Positions 2,276 through 42,645 of a DNA stretch of 53,150 nt are shown here, piece after piece. Position 1 is the stretch's first letter. Every line of letters starts with the position of its first letter. The DNA lies in the NCBI GenBank assembly GCA_023663225.1, contig JAMPHU010000017.1:1-53150 (forward strand), in the 5' to 3' direction. The translations under genes and the position numbers were made by a program. Source of the stretch: Candidatus Gastranaerophilales bacterium (GTDB lineage Bacteria; Bacillota; Clostridia; Lachnospirales; Lachnospiraceae). The notes beneath the pieces are model-generated. The model saw only the letters and a program-made list of their open reading frames with translations, had not been told where the DNA came from and did not search any database.

Positions 2276-3322
2276 ATGGAGACACAGTCTATGATTCAGA
2301 TAAAGATGGAGACACAGCCTATTATTCAGATAAAGAATGTCACCAAGAGTTTTGTAGGAAAAGATAATACCGTGGAGGCTTTAAAGGGGATCAGTCTGGA
2401 TATCCAAAAAGGTGATATCTATGGGATCATCGGTATGAGCGGTGCGGGAAAGTCCACGCTGGTCCGCTGTCTCAATTTTCTGGAGAAGCCTACCACAGGT
2501 ACAGTGGTGATCGAGAACAGGGACTTGTCCAAGCAAAGCGAGAAGGAGCTTCGTCAGATTCGCACACGCATCGCGATGATCTTTCAGCATTTTAATCTGC
2601 TGATGCAGAGAAACGTGTTGGACAATGTGTGTTTCCCGTTGGAGATAGTCGGTGTGAAGCGGAAGGAGGCGGTTGCCAGAGCGATGGAGTTGCTTGAGAT
2701 CGTAGGACTTTCCGAGAAGGCCAAAAACTATCCCGCCCAACTTTCCGGCGGACAGAAGCAGAGGGTTGCGATCGCGAGAGCGTTGGCCACCAACCCGCAG
2801 ATCTTGCTCTGCGACGAGGCCACCAGCGCTTTGGATCCTACCACCACCAAGTCGATCTTGAAGCTGTTACAGGAGATCAATGCCCAATATGGCATTACGA
2901 TCGTGATCATCACCCATGAGATGTCGGTGGTGCAGGAGATTTGCTCTCATGTGGCTATCATAGATGAGGGGGTGTTGGTGGAGCATGGTACAGTGGAGGA
3001 GATTTTTTCCAGACCGCAGACCGACGCGGCCAAAAAGCTGGTATTCATGGTCAATCCCACAAGAGATCTGATGAGGGGCAGGCGATGTATCCGCATTGTA
3101 TACAAAGAAAATTCTTCCTTTGAACCTGTCATCGCCAATATGGTGTTGGAGTGCAAGGCCCCCGTGAATATATTGAAGGCGGAGACGGAGGATATCGGCG
3201 GTATTGCCCATGGGCAGATGATCCTGCAACTGCCGGAGGAGGATAGTGTGGCTGAGAGGATGATCCGTTATCTGGAAGAGAGAAAATTAGTGGTGGAGGA
3301 GTTGAAGGCATATGTGGAGTGA
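2276..3322 (+). CDS. metN: Methionine ABC transporter, ATP-binding protein MetN
   Basis: This is the cytoplasmic ATPase of the D/L-methionine importer. Walker A GMSGAGKST is at residues 53-61, followed by the Q-loop (QHFNLL), signature [15 protein letters not shown], Walker B LLCDEATSALD and the H-loop His in ITHEM. The last ~100 residues resemble the ACT-like NIL domain that senses methionine in MetN. Length (348) is normal. The N-terminus is odd: the first 60 bases are a tandem duplication of a 30-base unit differing at two positions, so the peptide begins with METQSMIQIK and METQPIIQIK in tandem. ATG 2276 has the best binding site (AGGTGGGAT), but ATG 2306 would restore a conventional N-terminus. 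metI overlaps its end by 11 bases. Confidence 0.95.
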   Translation: METQSMIQIKMETQPIIQIKNVTKSFVGKDNTVEALKGISLDIQKGDIYGIIGMSGAGKSTLVRCLNFLEKPTTGTVVIENRDLSKQSEKELRQIRTRIAMIFQHFNLLMQRNVLDNVCFPLEIVGVKRKEAVARAMELLEIVGLSEKAKNYPAQLSGGQKQRVAIARALATNPQILLCDEATSALDPTTTKSILKLLQEINAQYGITIVIITHEMSVVQEICSHVAIIDEGVLVEHGTVEEIFSRPQTDAAKKLVFMVNPTRDLMRGRRCIRIVYKENSSFEPVIANMVLECKAPVNILKAETEDIGGIAHGQMILQLPEEDSVAERMIRYLEERKLVVEELKAYVE

Positions 3323-3974
3323 AGCGGTTGTAATGATGATGGTGGAAGGCTTTTTTGTGACGCTGTACATAGCGCTGGTATCCACATTCTTGGCATATTG
3401 TATCGGACTTCCCATGGGAGTGGCGCTGGTGGTCACAGCCAAAGGCGGGTTGCGGCCAAACGCAATTATCTACAAAATACTGGATGTGATCGCCAACATT
3501 GTGAGGAGCATCCCGTTTTTGATCCTGCTGATTTTGGTGATTCCTCTGACGCGCCTGATCGTGGGCAAGACTTACGGTCCCACCTCGACGATTGTTCCGC
3601 TGGTGTTGGCGGCGGGGCCTTTCATCGCCAGAATGGTGGAGTCCTCCCTGTTGGAAGTGGACGCCGGAGTGATCGAGGCGGCGCAAAGCATGGGAGCGAG
3701 CACTTGGACGATCATTTGTAAGGTGATGATCGGGGAGGCGCGCACCTCGCTGGTCATGGGCGCCACAATTGTGCTGGGGACGGTGCTTGGATATTCCGCT
3801 ATGGCGGGGATCGTAGGCGGAGGCGGACTGGGAGACATTGCGATCCGATACGGCTACTATCGCTATCAGGTGGATATTATGGTCGTGGCGGTGGTGCTGT
3901 TGGTGCTGGTGGTACAAGTGTTACAGATGGTCGGCACCAAGATTTCCAAGGCCATGGATAAGCGCATCAAATAG
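3312..3974 (+). CDS. metI: Methionine ABC transporter permease MetI
   Basis: A 220-residue integral membrane protein with about five hydrophobic helices. The cytoplasmic coupling loop is around residues 110-135, where MVESSLLEVDAGVIEAAQSM matches the EAA-type motif of MetI (EAAxxMGA continues into GAS). It forms the dimeric channel of the methionine importer with MetN and receives substrate from MetQ. The start ATG at 3312 overlaps metN by 11 bases, which suggests translational coupling. The length is typical for the family. Confidence 0.93.
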   Translation: MWSEAVVMMMVEGFFVTLYIALVSTFLAYCIGLPMGVALVVTAKGGLRPNAIIYKILDVIANIVRSIPFLILLILVIPLTRLIVGKTYGPTSTIVPLVLAAGPFIARMVESSLLEVDAGVIEAAQSMGASTWTIICKVMIGEARTSLVMGATIVLGTVLGYSAMAGIVGGGGLGDIAIRYGYYRYQVDIMVVAVVLLVLVVQVLQMVGTKISKAMDKRIK

Positions 3975-3981
3975 TGACAGA

Positions 3982-4021
3982 CGGTGCGGACTCCGGCAGC
4001 TTAAAGGTTTGCGGAGCGCCG
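3982..4021 (+). other. Hairpin between metI and metQ
   Basis: CGGTG (3982-3986) and CTCCG (3991-3995) can pair with CGGAG (4012-4016) and CGCCG (4017-4021), giving an interrupted stem in the 86-base gap between metI and metQ. There is no U-tract, so it is unlikely to be a full terminator. A role in differential mRNA stability, favouring the abundant binding protein, is possible. Confidence 0.35.
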
Positions 4022-4060
4022 TTTGTAGATAAATATCAATACATTTAGGAGGAGAAGATT

Positions 4061-4867
4061 ATGAAAAAGAAGATTTTGGCACTGATCGGTGTGGCAGCGC
4101 TTTCCGCGGGACTGTTGACCGGATGTGGAAGTGGAGCTGATGACAAGACCATCAAGGTGGCGGCGAGCGCGACTCCCCACGCGGAGATACTGGAGCAGGC
4201 GGCTCCTATTTTGGAGGCGCAGGGTTATACGCTGGAGATTCAGGTGTTCAACGACTATGTTCAACCCAATGAGGTGGTAGAGTCGGGTGATTTTGACGCA
4301 AACTATTTTCAGCACATTCCCTATTTGGAGTCCTTTAATGAGGAAAAAGGAACGCACCTGGTAAATGCAGGCGGTATTCATTATGAGCCTTTTGGCCTCT
4401 ATCCCGGAAAAGAGAGTGATCTTGACAAGATGGAGGGAGCCACGATCGCGATTCCCAACGATACGACCAACGAGGCGCGCGCGCTGTTGCTGCTACAGGA
4501 TAACGGCTATATCACTCTGACTGACGGCGTCGGCATAACCGCTACGGTGAATGATATTGTAGATAACCCTTACGGTATCGAGCTGGTGGAGTTGGAGGCG
4601 GCGCAGATCCCCAGAACGCTTCCCGATGTGTCCTTTGGCATCCTGAACGGCAATTATGCTATGGAGGCAGGGATGACTGTCGCAAATGACGCGCTGTTCT
4701 ATGAGAGCAATGAGTCTGAGGCGGCGACCACTTATGTGAACGTCATAGCTGTGAAGGAAGGCAATGAGGATACGGCGAAGATCAAGGCTTTGGTGGATGC
4801 GCTCAAGTCGGATGAGATCAAAAATTACATCAACGAGACTTACAACGGAGCGGTCATTCCTTTTTAA
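4061..4867 (+). CDS. metQ: Methionine-binding lipoprotein MetQ (NlpA family)
   Basis: The extracytoplasmic methionine receptor of the importer. A type II signal peptide ends in the lipobox LLTGC with the lipidated Cys22. The mature protein shows KVAASATPHAEILEQAAPIL, the VQPNEVVESGDFDANYFQHIPYL region and PNDTTNEARALLLLQDNGYI, all hallmarks of the NlpA/MetQ family. Length 268 is typical. The start ATG follows AGGAGGAG at good spacing. It is third in the metNIQ operon, and the Rrf2 gene follows 28 bases later. Confidence 0.95.
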   Translation: MKKKILALIGVAALSAGLLTGCGSGADDKTIKVAASATPHAEILEQAAPILEAQGYTLEIQVFNDYVQPNEVVESGDFDANYFQHIPYLESFNEEKGTHLVNAGGIHYEPFGLYPGKESDLDKMEGATIAIPNDTTNEARALLLLQDNGYITLTDGVGITATVNDIVDNPYGIELVELEAAQIPRTLPDVSFGILNGNYAMEAGMTVANDALFYESNESEAATTYVNVIAVKEGNEDTAKIKALVDALKSDEIKNYINETYNGAVIPF

Positions 4868-4895
4868 TGAAAGTGAAAATGATAACAGGTGAAAC

Positions 4896-5336
4896 ATGAA
4901 AATTTCGACAAAAGGCAGATACGCGGTGCGGGTTATGTTGGATCTGGCGCTGCACAATACAGGTGAATGTATCAAGGTGAAAGATATCGCCGCAAGGCAG
5001 GGAATCTCCGAAAAATATTTGGAGCAGATCATTGCGATCCTAAACAAGGCAGGATGTGTGAAAAGCGTGCGCGGAGCGCAGGGAGGCTATCGCATTGCCG
5101 GAGATCCCGGGGAATATACGGTGGGGATGATCCTGAGACTGACGGAAGGTTCGCTTGCCCCCGTGGCATGCCTGGAGGAGAATACAAACGAGTGCAACAG
5201 GGTGGACACCTGCGAGACCATGCAGGTCTGGAAAGAACTGTACGCGGCCATCAATCATGTGGTGGACGGCGTCACGGTGGCCGACTTGGTGGAACAACAT
5301 AAAAAAAATCTGGATGTGATGGATTTCAGTATCTAA
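4896..5336 (+). CDS. Rrf2-family transcriptional regulator (cysteine/methionine or Fe-S type)
   Basis: A 146-residue winged-helix regulator. The N-terminal KISTKGRYAVRVMLDLALH and the helix-turn-helix at residues 27-50 (VKDIAARQGISEKYLEQII) define the Rrf2 family, and VRGAQGGYRIA is the wing. Three cysteines, C92, C100 and C106, sit where IscR holds its Fe-S cluster, although the spacing here is C-X7-C-X5-C. Clostridial members of this type include cysteine-metabolism (CymR-like) and IscR-like regulators; the sequence alone does not settle which. Its place as the last gene of a methionine uptake operon with a CCTAC-N7-GTAGG site at the promoter suggests autoregulated control of sulfur amino acid uptake. 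Confidence 0.85.
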   Translation: MKISTKGRYAVRVMLDLALHNTGECIKVKDIAARQGISEKYLEQIIAILNKAGCVKSVRGAQGGYRIAGDPGEYTVGMILRLTEGSLAPVACLEENTNECNRVDTCETMQVWKELYAAINHVVDGVTVADLVEQHKKNLDVMDFSI

Positions 5337-5352
5337 AAAGAAATAAGCGTAT

Positions 5353-5393
5353 GAAAATGCTCGGGTTGATCAAATGTCAGCCTGAGCATTTTC
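5353..5393. terminator. Bidirectional terminator
   Basis: GAAAATGCTCGGG and CCTGAGCATTTTC form a 13-base-pair stem with one G-T pair, around a 15-base loop. A/T runs lie on both sides of the stem. It separates the plus-strand met operon from the convergent minus-strand gene, whose stop codon lies at its edge. Confidence 0.8.
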
Positions 5394-6525
5394 AGTTCTG
5401 CGCCTGATATTCGCAGAGGGCGTCGGATATCGCGATCGTGTCGATCAACTGGAGTCCGTCTCGGGAACGCCTGAAAATTTGGATGGTTCCTGTGCCGGAG
5501 CCGCCGCTAAGAAGGGGTTGCGCAGGCAAGCTGCCGGAGGGCGACTCGTAGGTCAGCTCCATCATTTGTGCTTTGAGGCTGCTCAAGGAGATTTTGATGA
5601 CAGCGTTTCGGTTCTGCGCTTTGATATGCCAGATATAGCGTTTGTCGGTCTCCTTTATGCTCCACTTGCTGCGGGCCGGATCTCTGGGGTCGGCAAAATG
5701 AAACTCAAAATCTTCCCCTCTGTAAGTGAGTTGAATGAAGAGTTTGCGCCGCAAAGGGATGAAGAACAGTTTGGGGCAGCACCCGTCTATAGTCAGTGCG
5801 GAATTTTTGTACTCGTTGCCGGTGGATTTGCTGATCAGGTGTCCGGAGGCAAAACGCAGCAGCGGAGAGTTGAAACTCCTGCCCCAGTGCTTGTCGGCGT
5901 AGCCATAGCTAGTCTCGGGTGAGACCTCGTATAAGACACCGTTCAAAGAGACTGTGCCCCTATAAAAAGTGCGGATTCCTTCTCCGTGCCAAAAGCTTGT
6001 GAGTGCGCCGATCGCTGTACAGAACAGGCCGGAGAGGAAGCCGGTGTGACAGGACACCGCCTTGTGGACCTCCAGATCCCATTCCATATAGCCCTCATCG
6101 GTCATAAAAGAGCGATGTCTGGCCTCCTCCCTGGAAATCTCTACGAAACCGGTAATATGGTTTTCGCTGTAAAAACAGTCTTCCGCCTGGAGGATAAAAG
6201 GTTCTTTTGCAGATTTTAGGGAGGATATGGGGTAATAGGCGTTCAACTGCATACCGTCCATGTCGTCCGCGTTAGGGAATACGCCTGTTTTGACCAAGAT
6301 ATAGGAGGGTTTCATCCCCCGCTTTTTGAAATAAGGATGCTGTCCCAGGATAGGCTGCTCGCCGCCAAGAGCCGGATTGAGTATTCTGTACTCAATAAAA
6401 AAAGTGCGGACTTCCCTGGTGTCCGGCTGGACGCCTCGAAAAGAGTGGTACCAACTCATATAGCCGCGCCGCGCAAGAGAACCGTGCAGCATGTAGGCGT
6501 TCCTGTCTAAATCGGATCGATTCAT
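5392..6525 (-). CDS. Tocopherol-cyclase-like / lipocalin-like protein
   Basis: A 377-residue soluble protein with no signal peptide or membrane helix. It contains EWDLEVHKA-type beta strands and the segment YGYADKHWGRSFNSPLLRF, which resembles the conserved Trp-Gly region of tocopherol cyclase (VTE1)-like proteins; that fold is a pair of lipocalin-like barrels. Bacterial members in anaerobes are not expected to make tocopherol and their substrate is unknown. I start it at ATG 6525, with AGGAG ten bases upstream; the frame is open to 6651 but lacks a better site. It is monocistronic and convergent with the met operon. The family call is moderate and rests on one motif and overall beta-rich character. 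Confidence 0.5.
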   Translation of the reverse strand: MNRSDLDRNAYMLHGSLARRGYMSWYHSFRGVQPDTREVRTFFIEYRILNPALGGEQPILGQHPYFKKRGMKPSYILVKTGVFPNADDMDGMQLNAYYPISSLKSAKEPFILQAEDCFYSENHITGFVEISREEARHRSFMTDEGYMEWDLEVHKAVSCHTGFLSGLFCTAIGALTSFWHGEGIRTFYRGTVSLNGVLYEVSPETSYGYADKHWGRSFNSPLLRFASGHLISKSTGNEYKNSALTIDGCCPKLFFIPLRRKLFIQLTYRGEDFEFHFADPRDPARSKWSIKETDKRYIWHIKAQNRNAVIKISLSSLKAQMMELTYESPSGSLPAQPLLSGGSGTGTIQIFRRSRDGLQLIDTIAISDALCEYQAQN

Positions 6526-6660
6526 TCGTTCTTTACTCCTGTCGAAGGCATCTGGACGTTTACAAGATATCGTGGTACTTTTGTACATTATAATACTATA
6601 TATTGTAAATGACAATAGTGTCAAAGAAATTTTTTTAAAATTTTGTGGCAATGCACGCTT

Positions 6661-38043: not shown

Positions 38044-38751
38044 TCATATATCGCCTTCGGCGGCCGTCATGTATCGTATCAGCCGTCTCCTTGCCGACGA
38101 CGCGTAACTTTTTCCGATGGGAAGACAGGTTCCTTCTTCCAACGTAATCTCGTTTCCCCGTATCGTTCTGATAGTCCGCTGATTTACCAGAAAACCTTTG
38201 TGGATGCGGACAAAACCATTTCCGGACAGCGCCGCTTCCAGGGAATAAAGCGTATCCCGAAAGCGATATATTTCTCCTGATTTGACGGCCAGCTTCACAT
38301 AATTTCCTTCCGATTCAAAAAATAAGATTTCCGATAAAGGCAGTTTGATCCTTTCCGCTCCCGACTGAAAGGAAAAATACCTTTCTCGGCTCTCTAATTC
38401 CTCCGCGCAGTCCGTCAACAGCTTTTCCATCTCTTCTGCAAAATATGCTTTTCGCACAAAACCGAAGGGATGGAATTTCAGACTGTCGTATACCAGCTCG
38501 TCATGGCTGGTCACAAAGACAAGCAAAGGCTTTGCCTCCAGCTTATCCATCAGGGCAGCCAGCTCCAGACCGCTTATCTGTGGCATATCGATGTCCAGGC
38601 AGAGCACATCGCATCGCTCCGTTCTTAGAGATTCCCATAAGTCCAGGCTTTTCTCGTAGCATTTGACAAGACTGTCCGGCTGCATAACCTGTATTTTTGT
38701 AGCCATATCCTGCAAGATCTGTTTTTCGTCATCACATAGATAAATTCTCAT
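38044..38751 (-). CDS. LytTR-family response regulator (AgrA-like)
   Basis: A 235-residue regulator. The receiver domain (1-120) has CDDEK at residues 6-10, the phosphoacceptor Asp53 in LCLDIDMP and the conserved Lys in GFVRKAY. The LytTR DNA-binding domain (about 135-230) shows ILFFESEGNYVKLAVKSGEI, FVRIHKGFLVNQRTI and LPIGKSY. It pairs with the downstream GHKL kinase. Regulated genes may include the ABC exporter next to it; this is inference. Confidence 0.92.
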   Translation of the reverse strand: MRIYLCDDEKQILQDMATKIQVMQPDSLVKCYEKSLDLWESLRTERCDVLCLDIDMPQISGLELAALMDKLEAKPLLVFVTSHDELVYDSLKFHPFGFVRKAYFAEEMEKLLTDCAEELESRERYFSFQSGAERIKLPLSEILFFESEGNYVKLAVKSGEIYRFRDTLYSLEAALSGNGFVRIHKGFLVNQRTIRTIRGNEITLEEGTCLPIGKSYASSARRRLIRYMTAAEGDI

Positions 38752-38848
38752 GGGGCCTCCCTCCGGCCATCCGGCCGTTCCCTGCCTTGAATAAGGTCAT
38801 CATATCATAAAAAACAAATGGCAGCTACTAAAATCTTGATGGTTGTAA

Positions 38849-38876
38849 TTGAGGCTCAAATAGAGTAGAATAAGAT
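38849..38876 (+). promoter_or_regulatory. Possible promoter of the retron locus
   Basis: TTGAGG (38849-38854) and TAAGAT (38871-38876) are 16 bases apart and lie 36 bases before the start of the 233-residue gene. The fit is moderate. No better promoter stands between that gene and the retron RNA. Confidence 0.45.
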
Positions 38877-38911: not shown

Positions 38912-39613
38912 TTGGAAAATACAAAAGAATCAGGGAAAAATTTTATCAGAGATTTGGATGACCAGGCGCGAAAAACCACTATGCAGTATATTTTTAAAAA
39001 GGTGATATTCGATGCAGGCGGCAGGCACAATGAAAATTTCTTATTTAGAAAGGAAACGAGGGCCAGAAAGCGGGATATTGGGAAAACAAGGATTCTGTAT
39101 ATCAAAGATCATGTCAGGGTGAGATTTACCGATAACGATATTTTGGATATGATATTGAGAATAGAGAAGAAGGAAGTCGTATGTCAGCTCCTTAAAAACC
39201 TTAAAGCGATATATGTGGGAAAATATACGAAAACTGTGATGGTTATGGGGCAAGACAAATATGAGATCCCGCTTTTGCCCGCTATTGAATATGATCAATT
39301 ATTAGATAACAGGAAAGACATTTGTATCGCTTTTGAGGACTTGTATGTGCTGATCAATCTGATCATAGCGAAGGATATCGCGGCAAACGATACGGTTGAT
39401 GCAATTGATTTTTTCGAGCGAACGCTATACAAGTATATACTTGTGATTGGTTATTACTATTTTCATGGAGCAAAAGAAAAGACATTGTTTGACCGGATGA
39501 AGATAGAGTCCACAGGCGACTTTTATTTCGATTTTGAAGTCGGAGGATATGCAAAGGAGAATCTGCAGAAAATAACCAATTACAAACAATTTGATTTTTC
39601 TGAAATTTTGTGA
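38912..39613 (+). CDS. Protein of unknown function upstream of the retron RNA
   Basis: A 233-residue protein that I do not recognise. It starts at TTG 38912 with AAGGGG upstream. It is mixed alpha/beta with a basic N-terminus (TRARKRDIGKTRILYIKDHV), a central strand-rich part (IYVGKYTKTVMVMGQDKYEI) and a helical segment (VLINLIIAKDIAAND). There is no signal peptide and no obvious catalytic motif. Its stop codon lies only ten bases before the a1 arm of the msr-msd RNA, it shares the AT-rich composition of the retron and it is on the same strand. It is therefore a candidate extra component, or the source of the transcript from which the retron RNA is made. Confidence 0.7.
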   Translation: MENTKESGKNFIRDLDDQARKTTMQYIFKKVIFDAGGRHNENFLFRKETRARKRDIGKTRILYIKDHVRVRFTDNDILDMILRIEKKEVVCQLLKNLKAIYVGKYTKTVMVMGQDKYEIPLLPAIEYDQLLDNRKDICIAFEDLYVLINLIIAKDIAANDTVDAIDFFERTLYKYILVIGYYYFHGAKEKTLFDRMKIESTGDFYFDFEVGGYAKENLQKITNYKQFDFSEIL

Positions 39614-39623
39614 TAACATGTAG

Positions 39624-39837
39624 AAAGGATTCTAGTAAGGCATTTAGCCCCCTCAGCGTCTGAGGATAATGCATTGAAAATTTGGTTAAATTTGTTCGAC
39701 TACCGTCGAATTATTTGAGAGATCAAGCTGAAATCAAACGAACCCTTCAATTGAAGCCGACTGGCTTCAATTGAACGAACCCTTCGCTTTCATCTTGATT
39801 TTCAATAAATTCTTTCCAAATTTAAGTAGAATCCTTT
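39624..39837 (+). ncRNA. Retron msr-msd RNA
   Basis: The terminal a1 arm AAAGGATTCTA (39624-39634) is perfectly complementary to the a2 arm TAGAATCCTTT (39827-39837). After a1 comes TTTAGC with candidate branching G at 39647. The msr stem-loops are CCTCAG-CGT-CTGAGG (39651-39665) and TTCGAC-TACC-GTCGAA (39695-39710). The msd is a long hairpin at 39721-39800: the top 13 pairs are perfect (TTCAATTGAAGCC with GGCTTCAATTGAA, loop GACT), and the lower stem pairs TCAAGCTGAAA with TTTCATCTTGA, separated by an internal loop containing CGAACCC on both sides. AAATTTGG (39678-39685) also pairs with CCAAATTT (39816-39823). The order matches known retrons. Confidence 0.85.
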
Positions 39838-39852
39838 TTTGATGGAGATTTT

Positions 39853-40947
39853 ATGGGAGACTATTATTTTAAAGAAAATATCCGAATAAGTGATTATACC
39901 TACATTTTTTTGTGTGGAGTATCTTTGAATTATCAAGACATGCAGCGCGATAAAAGAGTTGTGCTAAGTGAATTTTTGAAGGCGGTGGATGAGAATAATC
40001 GGCCTATTATTCTTGAAAAGTATTTTGTTCCGAAGAACAAATCCTATCCCAAAAAATTAACTTATGCGGAGGCCGGATTTGATAATTTATACCAAGTGGA
40101 AATGTTGGTAAATTTCCTGTCAGACGCTAATTTTATTATATTGGAAAGTATATCCACAGGCGCCGAGGCGGGGTTGTTTTTGGGTGTTCCTGACGCGCAA
40201 AAGAAGACGTGTCTGTTGGTTCCGGATGAGATGGCAGTTGAAGAGGATAAACTAGGGGCGTTTTTACGCGCTGCGTTTGGCGACACTTATGTGAATATTT
40301 TGAAATTTTATCCTCAAATCAAGCGCAATAAAATTTCTCAAAATGTTTTTCATTGGTTGACCTTTTTTCATCAAAATGAGATTGGAAAGGAATTAGGCGC
40401 TAATATTCGAGATTTTATAGACAAAAACATAGGGAAAAGAGGAGTTTGCTTTACCGTCAATAAATCAGATATCGTACAGGGAGAGATTTATTATAAAATA
40501 GAAGAGGATCATTTACAAATTGAAATACAGCCGCGTATGCTGATGTTCTGTTTTGCCGCTATCTTGAATTGTGCGGAATATGAATCTGAATTTTTCTCAA
40601 AAGCAGGATACACCGTTCTGGAAATCGAGAAAAGAGTTGTTGATTGGCTTAAGGAAACCTTTATCAACAGCATTGCTGAAAAGGTTGGAAAGAAAGCTTT
40701 TTATTGTTCGATCAAGGTGAATACCAATATTGAGCAGATGAGTGTCAATAGAGCGATTGGGATGATTTTGTATTTGTTCTCCGCAGCAGAGCTTTTATCC
40801 ATCAAGAAGAGCGCGGACTACAAAACAACAAATAGAATTGTGATTTCCAAAAAGATGATTCGTCTCGACGGAAGGGAAAACCAGTATTTTTATCATAAAT
40901 ACAGGGATTGCGTGGCTGCGGTGATTGAAAGGAAGATAAGGATATAG
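39853..40947 (+). CDS. Retron effector, nucleoside deoxyribosyltransferase-like with C-terminal domain
   Basis: A 364-residue protein in the effector position of an Ec86-like retron. The N-terminal ~165 residues follow the NDT-like pattern: YIFLCGVSL (18-25), LSEFLKAV, LYQVEMLVNFLSDANFIILES and STGAEAGLFLGV, with Glu98 and Glu105 as candidate active-site residues. In the Ec86 system the corresponding effector is an N-glycosidase-type toxin held by the RNA-DNA-RT complex. The remaining ~200 residues are longer than in Ec86 and include a probable winged helix near 300-350 (AIGMILYLFSAAELLSI). It begins 15 bases after a2 with GGAG upstream, and the RT gene follows after 10 bases. Confidence 0.8.
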   Translation: MGDYYFKENIRISDYTYIFLCGVSLNYQDMQRDKRVVLSEFLKAVDENNRPIILEKYFVPKNKSYPKKLTYAEAGFDNLYQVEMLVNFLSDANFIILESISTGAEAGLFLGVPDAQKKTCLLVPDEMAVEEDKLGAFLRAAFGDTYVNILKFYPQIKRNKISQNVFHWLTFFHQNEIGKELGANIRDFIDKNIGKRGVCFTVNKSDIVQGEIYYKIEEDHLQIEIQPRMLMFCFAAILNCAEYESEFFSKAGYTVLEIEKRVVDWLKETFINSIAEKVGKKAFYCSIKVNTNIEQMSVNRAIGMILYLFSAAELLSIKKSADYKTTNRIVISKKMIRLDGRENQYFYHKYRDCVAAVIERKIRI

Positions 40948-40957
40948 TGGTGCAAAG

Positions 40958-41884
40958 ATGGCGGAAGATTTTGTTGTAAAATATATAAGAAGGAAAAATA
41001 AAATTCGCAAAATTGTAACCTATCAGGAATCATCTGAATTGCGAAAGTATCACGAGGCTGTGGTTGATTTTTTGCGTAAAAATGTATATGATTCTATATT
41101 TGCAAAAGCGTATGTTCCAGGAGCTTCCATATACAAAAATGCAGAGGCACATCTGTATAACGATATTTATGTGAAGGTAGATATTAAACAATTTTTTCCG
41201 AGCATTAATTTGAAGATCATGGAGGAACAACTGTATAAGGAGATCAGTAAAGTAGGAGAAATCAGCCGATTTGAATGTCACGAAATTGTGACTCGATGCA
41301 GCGTTGGTCAAAAAGGACTGCCGCTTGGCTTGGTATCCTCGCCCGCTCTTGCCAATATTTATTTAAAAGAATTTGATGGAATTTTGTACGGCAAGATGAA
41401 GAAATTAAAATTGGAGAATTTGATCTATACAAGATATGCAGACGACATGGTTATATCATTTAGAATCAAAGAGGGGGAAGAATACCGACAAAGCGTGGCG
41501 GAAATGCTCCGAATGATCACACGTTTGCTGGGGAAATACAAATTGAAGATCAATGAAAACAAGACGCAGATTATTAATTTATATCGATCCAACCATGTGA
41601 GAATAACGGGGGTGTCCGTTGTCAGACAGGAAAATAATTACCGCCATATCAGCGTAGGGCGAAAAACGAAAAATGAAATTTTTTGGGAGGCGATCAAGTT
41701 GTATGATGCAGAACAAATTGACTATAAAGAATTGAGTCATTTGAAGGGATTGCTATCATTTGTTTTGTCAATTGAGAAAAAGGGAATAGAAAATGTCTAT
41801 TCTGAAAAGATGATGAGCATGTTAAAGGAGAGAGGTGCGGATTCCGTCAAAGAGTTGTTAAAAAAAGCGGAACAACGGCAATAG
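40958..41884 (+). CDS. Retron reverse transcriptase
   Basis: A 308-residue reverse transcriptase that would copy the msd into branched msDNA. Retron hallmarks are present: NAEAH (61-65, the NAxxH motif), KVDIKQFFPSI with the first catalytic Asp75, GLPLGLVSSPALANIYL, the catalytic YADD (160-163) in LIYTRYADDMVIS, and ITG (216-218), the VTG-type motif, followed by the C-terminal HLKGLLSFVLSIEK thumb region. GLPLG replaces the more usual GLPQG. There is no maturase, endonuclease or integrase domain. The similarity in order and motifs to the Ec86 RT is clear. truA starts 17 bases later. Confidence 0.92.
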   Translation: MAEDFVVKYIRRKNKIRKIVTYQESSELRKYHEAVVDFLRKNVYDSIFAKAYVPGASIYKNAEAHLYNDIYVKVDIKQFFPSINLKIMEEQLYKEISKVGEISRFECHEIVTRCSVGQKGLPLGLVSSPALANIYLKEFDGILYGKMKKLKLENLIYTRYADDMVISFRIKEGEEYRQSVAEMLRMITRLLGKYKLKINENKTQIINLYRSNHVRITGVSVVRQENNYRHISVGRKTKNEIFWEAIKLYDAEQIDYKELSHLKGLLSFVLSIEKKGIENVYSEKMMSMLKERGADSVKELLKKAEQRQ

Positions 41885-41901: not shown

Positions 41902-42645
41902 ATGAAACAGAATTACAGACTGACGATCGCATATGACGGCTCGCGTTATTATGGCTGGGAGCATCAGCCAGGCACAGACATGACCATACAGGGAAAGCTG
42001 GAAAATGTGTTGGCCTTGATGGTGGGAGAACCTGTGGAGGTTATCGGAGCGGGGCGGACGGACGCGGGCGTCCACGCGAAAGCTATGACGGCCAATGCTT
42101 TTTTGCACACGGAATGGTCCGAGGAGGAGATCCGCGGGTATCTGAACCGTTATCTGCCGGATGATATATGCGTCAGTGAGGTACGCAGGGCGGGAGATCG
42201 CTTTCACAGCCGTTATAATGCGTTGGGCAAGACCTATGTCTATACCTGTTATGTGGGAGCGTCCAAACCGGTTTTTGATCGAAAATATGTGTATGCGTTG
42301 GAGGAGATGCCCGACGTGGAGAGGATGCGGCAGGCGGCGGAATATTTGAAAGGCGAGAAAGATTTTGCCAGTTTTTGCAGCAACCCCAGGATGAAAAAGT
42401 CTACGATCCGCAAGGTGGATAGAATCGACATCCGGCAAAAAGGGGACTATCTGACCTTTACTTACCATGGCACAGGATTTTTGCAGCATATGGTGCGGAT
42501 TCTGACGGGGACGCTGTTGGAGGTGGGATACGGCAGACGCGCGCCGGAGAGTATGGAAGAGCTGATCCCTGCGAAAAAGCGCGCGCTGGCAGGGCCTACG
42601 GCTCCCGCGCAGGGATTGTGTATGATGGAAGTGGACTACCATTGA
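41902..42645 (+). CDS. truA: tRNA pseudouridine(38-40) synthase TruA
   Basis: It isomerises uridines 38-40 in the anticodon arm of tRNAs. The 247-residue protein has the family start YRLTIAYDGSRYYGWEHQPG, the catalytic Asp54 in GAGRTDAGVHA, SRYNALGKTYVYT and the KDFASFCS and GFLQHMVRILTG segments. Length is typical. Codon choice and GC content return to those of the host, so this gene marks the right border of the retron insertion. Confidence 0.95.
   Translation: MKQNYRLTIAYDGSRYYGWEHQPGTDMTIQGKLENVLALMVGEPVEVIGAGRTDAGVHAKAMTANAFLHTEWSEEEIRGYLNRYLPDDICVSEVRRAGDRFHSRYNALGKTYVYTCYVGASKPVFDRKYVYALEEMPDVERMRQAAEYLKGEKDFASFCSNPRMKKSTIRKVDRIDIRQKGDYLTFTYHGTGFLQHMVRILTGTLLEVGYGRRAPESMEELIPAKKRALAGPTAPAQGLCMMEVDYH

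What the first reader, a model, noticed from the sequence alone, without database searches (positions are those of the whole stretch)
38912..41884. Retron with an additional upstream gene of unknown function
Four elements of like AT-rich composition lie on one strand between host-like genes: an unrecognised 233-residue protein, an msr-msd RNA, an NDT-like effector and a retron RT. RNA, effector and RT follow the Ec86 (type II) order. The upstream protein stops ten bases before the RNA's a1 arm and is not part of the Ec86 arrangement I know. It could be a third protein component (adaptor, inhibitor or trigger sensor), or simply the gene through which the RNA is transcribed. Host-composition genes resume at truA.
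Basis: partly seen in the sequence, partly recalled or inferred. Interest (0 to 1): 0.9.

Follow-up and report, generated by a model that had tools for sequence, protein, structure and literature searches.

The report
Retron with a conserved third protein
This is a bacterial anti-phage retron of the Ec86-like kind that carries an extra protein gene just upstream of its RNA; relatives in quite different bacteria carry the same extra gene, so it looks like a real, unstudied part of the system rather than a chance neighbour.

Summary
Window 38912-41884 carries a 233-aa ORF ("UP"), an msr-msd RNA, an NDT-domain effector and a retron RT, at about 37% GC between genes at about 50%. All 7 have the order UP - RNA - NDT - RT. 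UP homology is firm: a profile of five finds the sixth at E 1e-15 to 1e-32. UP was seen in none of 143 other RT loci, 97 of them with enough upstream DNA to tell, and in no other of 398 phylum genomes. Covariation supports the RNA; a promoter-like site lies just before a1 in 6 of 6, so UP is probably not merely the RNA's leader. A related ATPase-RT fusion has a similar RNA but no UP; NDT retrons outside the clade also lack UP. No known family matches UP. Best reading: a lineage-specific accessory or regulatory protein of a type II-A-like retron.

The parts
38843..38871 (+). weak promoter-like site before UP (TTGTAA-17-TAGAAT, 9 of 12)
   Evidence: 11 such sites found in the region against 10.8 in shuffles, so position is its only merit
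38912..39613 (+). UP, 233-aa upstream protein, TTG start, family conserved in this RT clade
39591..39619 (+). promoter-like site of the RNA: TTGATT-17-TAACAT with extended -10 (TG); the UP stop codon TGA lies inside it
   Evidence: best site has an extended -10 in 6 of 6 loci, 4-9 bases before the a1 core; summed score 65 against shuffled mean 47.7, 0 of 1000; the window's own site alone is not significant (0.08)
39620..39840 (+). msr-msd RNA
39626..39634 (+). a1 arm, pairs with 39827-39835; 7 of 9 pairs show changes on both sides
39635..39635 (+). invariant G after a1, candidate branching guanosine
   Evidence: its role is recalled from known retrons
39639..39649 (+). msr hairpin 1 (3 pairs)
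39650..39666 (+). msr hairpin 2 (7 pairs)
39686..39825 (+). msd long hairpin; base stem 39686-39694 with 39817-39825
39827..39840 (+). a2 arm ending in a run of six T; a run of at least five T stands at the end of a2 in all seven RNAs folded
39853..40947 (+). NDT-domain effector, 364 aa; E105 aligns with the Glu of the Ec86 effector that reads Ala in PDB 8qbl
40958..41884 (+). retron RT, 308 aa, YADD, NAxxH, ITG; short N-terminus compared with the Ec86 RT chain

Best explanation
This is a type II-A-like retron lineage with a third protein of its own. Shown by comparison: UP, RNA, NDT effector and RT occur as one unit in at least four named families of Bacillota, and a promoter-like site stands just behind UP at the start of the RNA. 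Inferred from Ec86/Eco1: the RT makes msDNA from the RNA, RT plus msDNA hold the NDT effector in check, and a phage trigger releases the effector to cleave a nucleotide or NAD and stop the cell. Inferred with less certainty: UP is a regulatory or accessory subunit that works with the NDT effector of this lineage, either keeping it safe until triggered or helping it sense or act, because UP is absent from a related retron in which the NDT effector is replaced by an ATPase.
For: UP present in 7 of 7 clade loci and 0 of 143 other RT loci (rows L096 and L097 were too short to show UP, but the wider fetches of the same places, L106 and L107, do). Leave-one-out profiles find each of 6 UPs at E 1.6e-15 to 1.3e-32 among 4241 ORFs. 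Single copy, only at the retron. Order and strand constant. Pairwise identities of UP correlate with effector (r 0.78) and RT (r 0.79), so the unit travels together (15 pairs from 6 sequences). The NDT-RT fusion L011 keeps a separate upstream ORF in the same place that is probably a distant UP (first against 798 background proteins, E 0.022; above all 500 sampled by hhalign). A decayed locus, L010, still shows the start of UP (E 1.8e-4). L012 has a similar RNA start and consensus promoter hexamers (by eye) but an ATPase-RT fusion and no UP. The RNA is real by covariation: 14 of 28 pairs with changes on both sides, 0 of 500 shuffles.
Against: Only seven loci, two of them near-copies. That UP goes with NDT rests on one locus, L012, whose RT is a long branch of unsure place; and NDT effectors in general do not need UP: 19 NDT-bearing RT rows outside the clade, L011 included, show none by profile (14 of them with at least 2.5 kb upstream). 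UP of L011 is not proven homologous: hhalign probability 5.5%, E 0.007, margin over the best background protein small (21.8 against 21.2), no hit at E <= 1 in its genome. In the Anaerovorax pair UP is short (207 aa as called, 180 from an inner ATG) and lacks the C-terminal part, which may mean it is dispensable there; there I also took an inner ATG for the effector, since the longest ORF runs into the RNA. In that pair UP has 3 synonymous and 8 non-synonymous changes as called (dN/dS 0.57), 3 and 4 from the inner start: too few to show selection.
Confidence: 0.55

Rival explanations
1. UP is the trigger sensor or adaptor: it binds a phage protein or a damaged host complex and passes the signal to the RT-msDNA-NDT complex.
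For: UP diverges about as fast as the effector (median identity 0.23 against 0.29; RT 0.47), as one might expect of a protein facing phage factors.
Against: No sensor domain found; in known retrons msDNA and RT themselves sense the trigger (recalled).
Confidence: 0.3
2. UP is an inhibitor (antitoxin-like) or chaperone of the NDT effector.
For: The gene lies first, as many antitoxin genes do (general knowledge); a probable UP persists in the NDT-RT fusion L011, and UP is absent where NDT is absent in L012.
Against: In Ec86 the RT-msDNA already holds the effector (recalled); NDT retrons outside the clade show no UP; no known inhibitor family matches.
Confidence: 0.3
3. UP is a second toxin or enzyme, for example a co-effector.
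For: Size and fast divergence fit; extra genes of some other defence systems are effectors (recalled).
Against: No catalytic motif recognised; the eight invariant residues of six UPs are D, I, L and K.
Confidence: 0.15
4. UP is only a transcription leader or passenger gene.
For: It directly abuts the RNA, with its stop codon inside the promoter-like site.
Against: Protein sequence conserved across families; promoter-like site before a1 in 6 of 6 loci; on three phage contigs with ordinary NDT retrons the upstream place is held by unrelated genes; L012 does without it.
Confidence: 0.07

Closest known systems
Retron Ec86 / Eco1 (type II-A, NDT effector)
   Same: Order RNA - NDT effector - RT; the effector profile matches the NDT part of the Ec86 effector, weakly (PDB 7v9x E 0.0029, 8qbl E 0.054), with the active-site Glu kept; the RT profile matches the Ec86 RT (5.8e-20); best PADLOC models RT_II-A (2.2e-45) and NDT_II-A (3.1e-9).
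   Different: A third protein upstream; effectors of 352-398 aa against 307 in the Ec86 chain; RT profile position 6 aligns with chain residue 49 of 7v9x_A, so the N-terminal part is short; separate RT clade.
NCBIfam retron St85 family effector and RT (NF038232, NF038233)
   Same: Best NCBIfam matches: effector 6.2e-13, RT 3.5e-46.
   Different: Both score far under the curated cut-offs (49.1 against 100; 157.8 against 235 bits).
   Same: Grouped with L011 (100/100) on the UP clade's side of the tree (100/99; L012 is a long branch); msr-msd-like RNA beginning like that of L011.
   Different: The N-terminal part is P-loop ATPase-like (NPHP3_N 8.3e-5, NACHT 2.9e-4, both under the cut-offs), fused to the RT; no UP; a divergent gene lies upstream.

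Membership tests
Retron | RT of the retron group with YxDD active site | tested here: met
   RVT_1 2.2e-21, retron RTs on top in PADLOC and NCBIfam; YADD invariant in 6
Retron | retron RT motifs NAxxH and VTG (recalled, from no call) | tested here: met
   N61, A62, H65 invariant; the VTG place reads ITG or LTG, T217 and G218 invariant
Retron | adjacent structured RNA with a1/a2 arms, msr hairpins and msd stem | tested here: met
   covariation on six RNAs; similar folds in the near-copy L107 and in L011
Retron | makes msDNA with a 2'-5' branch | not testable with these tools
   the invariant G after a1 is compatible
Type II-A (NDT) retron | NDT-domain effector between RNA and RT | tested here: met
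   the Glu is invariant in 6 of 6
Type II-A (NDT) retron | C-terminal DNA-binding (winged helix) domain of the effector | tested here: inconclusive
   no profile match beyond the NDT part; the C-terminus looks similar by eye only
Type II-A (NDT) retron | effector and RT without a further protein (as recalled for Ec86) | tested here: not met
   UP in 7 of 7 clade loci
NCBI retron St85 family | scores above curated cut-offs | tested here: not met
Any known family for UP | match to Pfam, NCBIfam, PADLOC, PHROGs or PDB sequence | tested here: not met
   none for the window UP at E up to 1. Six UPs: Pfam only single weak matches, best 0.0092; PADLOC 0 of 6; PDB profile search none at E up to 10. 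PHROGs, five UPs: best 0.13. NCBIfam was run on the window UP only.

The most novel reading that the evidence does not exclude
A four-part retron: a lineage across Bacillota in which a dedicated extra protein, of no known family, controls an NDT effector together with msDNA, so that threat sensing or effector release does not run through msDNA and RT alone as in Ec86.
Probability: 0.4. Interest if true: 0.78.

Novelty: new variant of a known kind. Interest (0 to 1): 0.63.

Why it matters
Retrons are described as three-part systems (RNA, RT, effector). A conserved extra protein inside one NDT lineage would give a handle on an open question, how the effector is held and released, and would add a retron subtype whose extra gene is not in PADLOC-DB 2.0.0. 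It also gives a practical warning: test constructs cut at the RNA would leave a component out.

Tried and rejected
Single-sequence searches with UP found nothing in genome contigs, viral contigs or plasmids, and only weak Aeromonas phage hits (E 0.1-0.2) in phages; the family appeared only by going through the RT. The UP of Cohnella found nothing in plasmids. The effector alone found only itself in 397 genomes. Rfam gave two matches at E about 4, far under their gathering scores. RT scans of viral contigs kept the best 80 of 359 relatives each; the best had E 5e-23, so none is of the clade. A UP profile scan of viral contigs found nothing, nor did the L011 upstream protein. The 150-aa ORFs upstream of NDT retrons on three phage contigs were considered as a possible shorter UP and rejected: no UP score (E 0.38 or worse), and like phage morphogenesis proteins by my reading. 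Synonymous against non-synonymous changes in the close pair were uninformative. An empty site was sought before truA in three genus mates: none has the retron or the window's LytTR gene there by blastn; two share one long gene before truA and the third has another, so the state before insertion is unclear. Literature: nine searches, seen as listings only, showed no title or abstract about such an upstream protein; I saw passages of PMC12548924 and PMC12887533, no whole paper. The key classification paper (Mestre 2020, doi 10.1093/nar/gkaa1149) is not held, so I cannot say whether it lists this gene.
Full report
What is in the window. Between a LytTR response regulator (38044-38751, minus) and truA (41902-42645, plus) lie four plus-strand elements at about 37% GC, against about 50% around them. 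They are UP (38912-39613, 233 aa), a structured RNA (about 39620-39840), an effector (39853-40947, 364 aa) and an RT (40958-41884, 308 aa). UP has no match in Pfam, PADLOC or NCBIfam at E up to 1. The effector matches PADLOC NDT_II-A (3.1e-9) and the NCBIfam retron St85 effector (6.2e-13, under its cut-off). The RT matches RT_II-A (2.2e-45) and the retron St85 RT (3.5e-46, under its cut-off). UP occurs once in the window's genome.

Finding the relatives. UP alone is too divergent to search with. The RT was searched in 397 genomes of the family; 7 matched at E <= 1e-15, the window's own genome included. Three of the others matter here: L010, a decayed piece 64% identical to RT residues 193-276; L011, an NDT-RT fusion; and L012, an ATPase-RT fusion. 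An RT profile over 392 genomes of the order gave 11 at E <= 1e-18; besides the window, two stood far out (5.5e-70 and 8.9e-70, next 4.3e-21). A scan of the species genomes in genome contigs with an alignment of these RTs gave 67 loci, of which four stood out (E <= 5e-76, next 1e-19): Fictibacillus nanhaiensis (L110), a Lachnospiraceae MAG (L111), Cohnella faecalis (L112) and Anaerovorax sp. IOR16 (L113), the last a near-copy of the order hit L107. That scan needs an exact match to one of two short RT peptides, so the clade may be larger than seen; the patterns do not depend on UP. RT searches of 197, 24 and 55 genomes in the families of three members found no further clade member.

UP is part of the unit. 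Every clade locus has an ORF of 207-237 aa on the same strand directly before the RNA, then the NDT effector, then the RT. A profile of five UPs finds the one left out at 9.5e-17 (window), 1.8e-24, 1.6e-15, 1.3e-32, 9.9e-19 and 2.2e-26 among 4241 ORFs, so they are one family although pairwise identity is only 0.18-0.40. Over 9586 ORFs from 262 records there were 150 distinct RTs: 7 in the clade and 143 outside. Five of the 7 rows carry UP in the same record; the other two (L096, L097) are short fetches whose wider versions, L106 and L107, carry it. None of the 143 others shows UP; 97 of them have at least 2.5 kb of DNA before the RT and 126 at least 1 kb, so the absence is not fully tested in the rest. 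Nineteen of the 143 carry an NDT effector, so NDT effectors in general do without UP. Among nine genomes, eight give one UP match each, all at the retron or, in one, its remnant; the ninth, that of L011, gives none at E <= 1. Elsewhere UP was found in 1 of 398 phylum genomes, the window's own, and in 1 of 34 genomes of the Fictibacillus family, Fictibacillus itself. The decayed L010 keeps the start of UP (1.8e-4).

The RNA. Folding energies of seven RNAs (six of the clade and L011) lie 4.6 to 8.3 standard deviations under 60 shuffles each. On six aligned RNAs the a1/a2 stem, two msr hairpins and the msd base stem give 91.1% paired cells (57.1% at most when slid), 14 of 28 pairs with changes on both sides (shuffled mean 6.3, 0 of 500 as high) and covariation score 0.445 against 0.208 (0 of 500). 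The count of further pair types (19) is not above shuffles (377 of 500 reach it). The structure was drawn from the same alignment, which favours it over slid versions. A G directly after a1 is invariant. In all seven RNAs a run of at least five T stands at the end of a2, so a1/a2 may also act as a terminator between the RNA and the effector gene; this was not tested. The best promoter-like site before a1 has an extended -10 in 6 of 6, 4-9 bases from the a1 core; with a bonus of 2 for the extended -10 the summed score is 65 against a shuffled mean of 47.7 scored the same way (0 of 1000); taken singly, window and L112 are not significant (0.08 and 0.32). The general promoter scan of the window region finds no excess and does not list this site.

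Related loci. In a tree of 50 RTs the UP clade (6 rows) is one side of a branch (88/98) and joins L011 and L012 with 100/99; the other NDT retrons lie elsewhere; the root is not inferred and L012 is a long branch. L011: NDT fused to RT (666 aa), an msr-msd-like RNA (z -5.3), and a 228-aa ORF just before it. That ORF ranks first against 798 background proteins with the UP profile, but weakly (E 0.022), and above all 500 sampled by hhalign by a small margin (21.8 against 21.2); the direct profile comparison gives probability 5.5%, E 0.007. Call it a probable distant UP. L012: a P-loop ATPase-like part (weak Pfam matches, under the cut-offs) fused to an RT (927 aa), an RNA that starts like that of L011 (CCTAG, then a hairpin), promoter consensus hexamers before it (by eye), and no UP; the next long ORF upstream is on the other strand. 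Within this group UP thus seems to go with the NDT effector, on the strength of one contrasting locus.

Likely working. The NDT domain aligns with the Ec86 effector, including the Glu that reads Ala in PDB 8qbl, and this residue is invariant in 6 of 6. PMC12887533 (passages) calls the Retron-Eco1 effector NDT-like and filament-forming, and its reference list has a paper titled as describing NAD-hydrolysing filaments. By analogy RT and msDNA hold the effector until a phage trigger. UP is then best read as an accessory subunit of the effector complex; whether it restrains, senses or helps is open. The RT profile of this clade begins where chain residue 49 of the Ec86 RT lies; that UP replaces the missing part is possible but only a thought.

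Known or new. No UP model was found in PADLOC-DB or Pfam (six UPs), PHROGs (five) or NCBIfam (the window UP), and nine paper searches listed nothing about it that I could see. Mestre 2020, where such a gene could be listed, could not be read. I file it as a new variant of a known kind.

Noticed in passing
L012 (G298) 3305-6088 minus, RNA just upstream: RT fused to a P-loop ATPase-like part (927 aa) behind an msr-msd-like RNA with promoter consensus hexamers; this fusion may be a retron type of its own.
   Followed up: partly
L011 (G265) 3524-6578 minus: NDT effector fused to the RT (666 aa), followed by a 185-aa protein with no Pfam match (looks membrane-like by eye) and a TIR-domain ORF (TIR_2 1.7e-11).
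   Followed up: partly
window 39835-39840 and the matching place in six other RNAs: A run of at least five T stands at the end of the a2 arm in all seven RNAs folded; a1/a2 could double as a terminator or attenuator before the effector gene.
   Followed up: no
L107 7789-10973 minus: Gabija-like GajB and GajA genes (PADLOC 1.2e-220 and 3.3e-204) lie directly upstream of UP; L113 has like ORFs, not scanned.
   Followed up: partly
L111 174-686 and 5668-6180: Two almost identical genes, acetyltransferase-like by eye, flank the retron in direct orientation, as if it sat in a duplication.
   Followed up: no
L010 (G339) about 5381-5939 minus: Decayed retron: start of UP next to the end of the RT, beside a type II restriction enzyme gene (REase_II 2.7e-96) and methylase-like ORFs.
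   Followed up: partly
L016, L019, L029 (viral contigs): Ordinary NDT retrons sit behind a shared 150-aa ORF that looks like a phage morphogenesis gene by eye.
   Followed up: no
L293 and L294, before truA: Two genus mates share a long ORF (813 and 786 aa) before truA where the window has the retron; the third mate, L292, has another gene.
   Followed up: no
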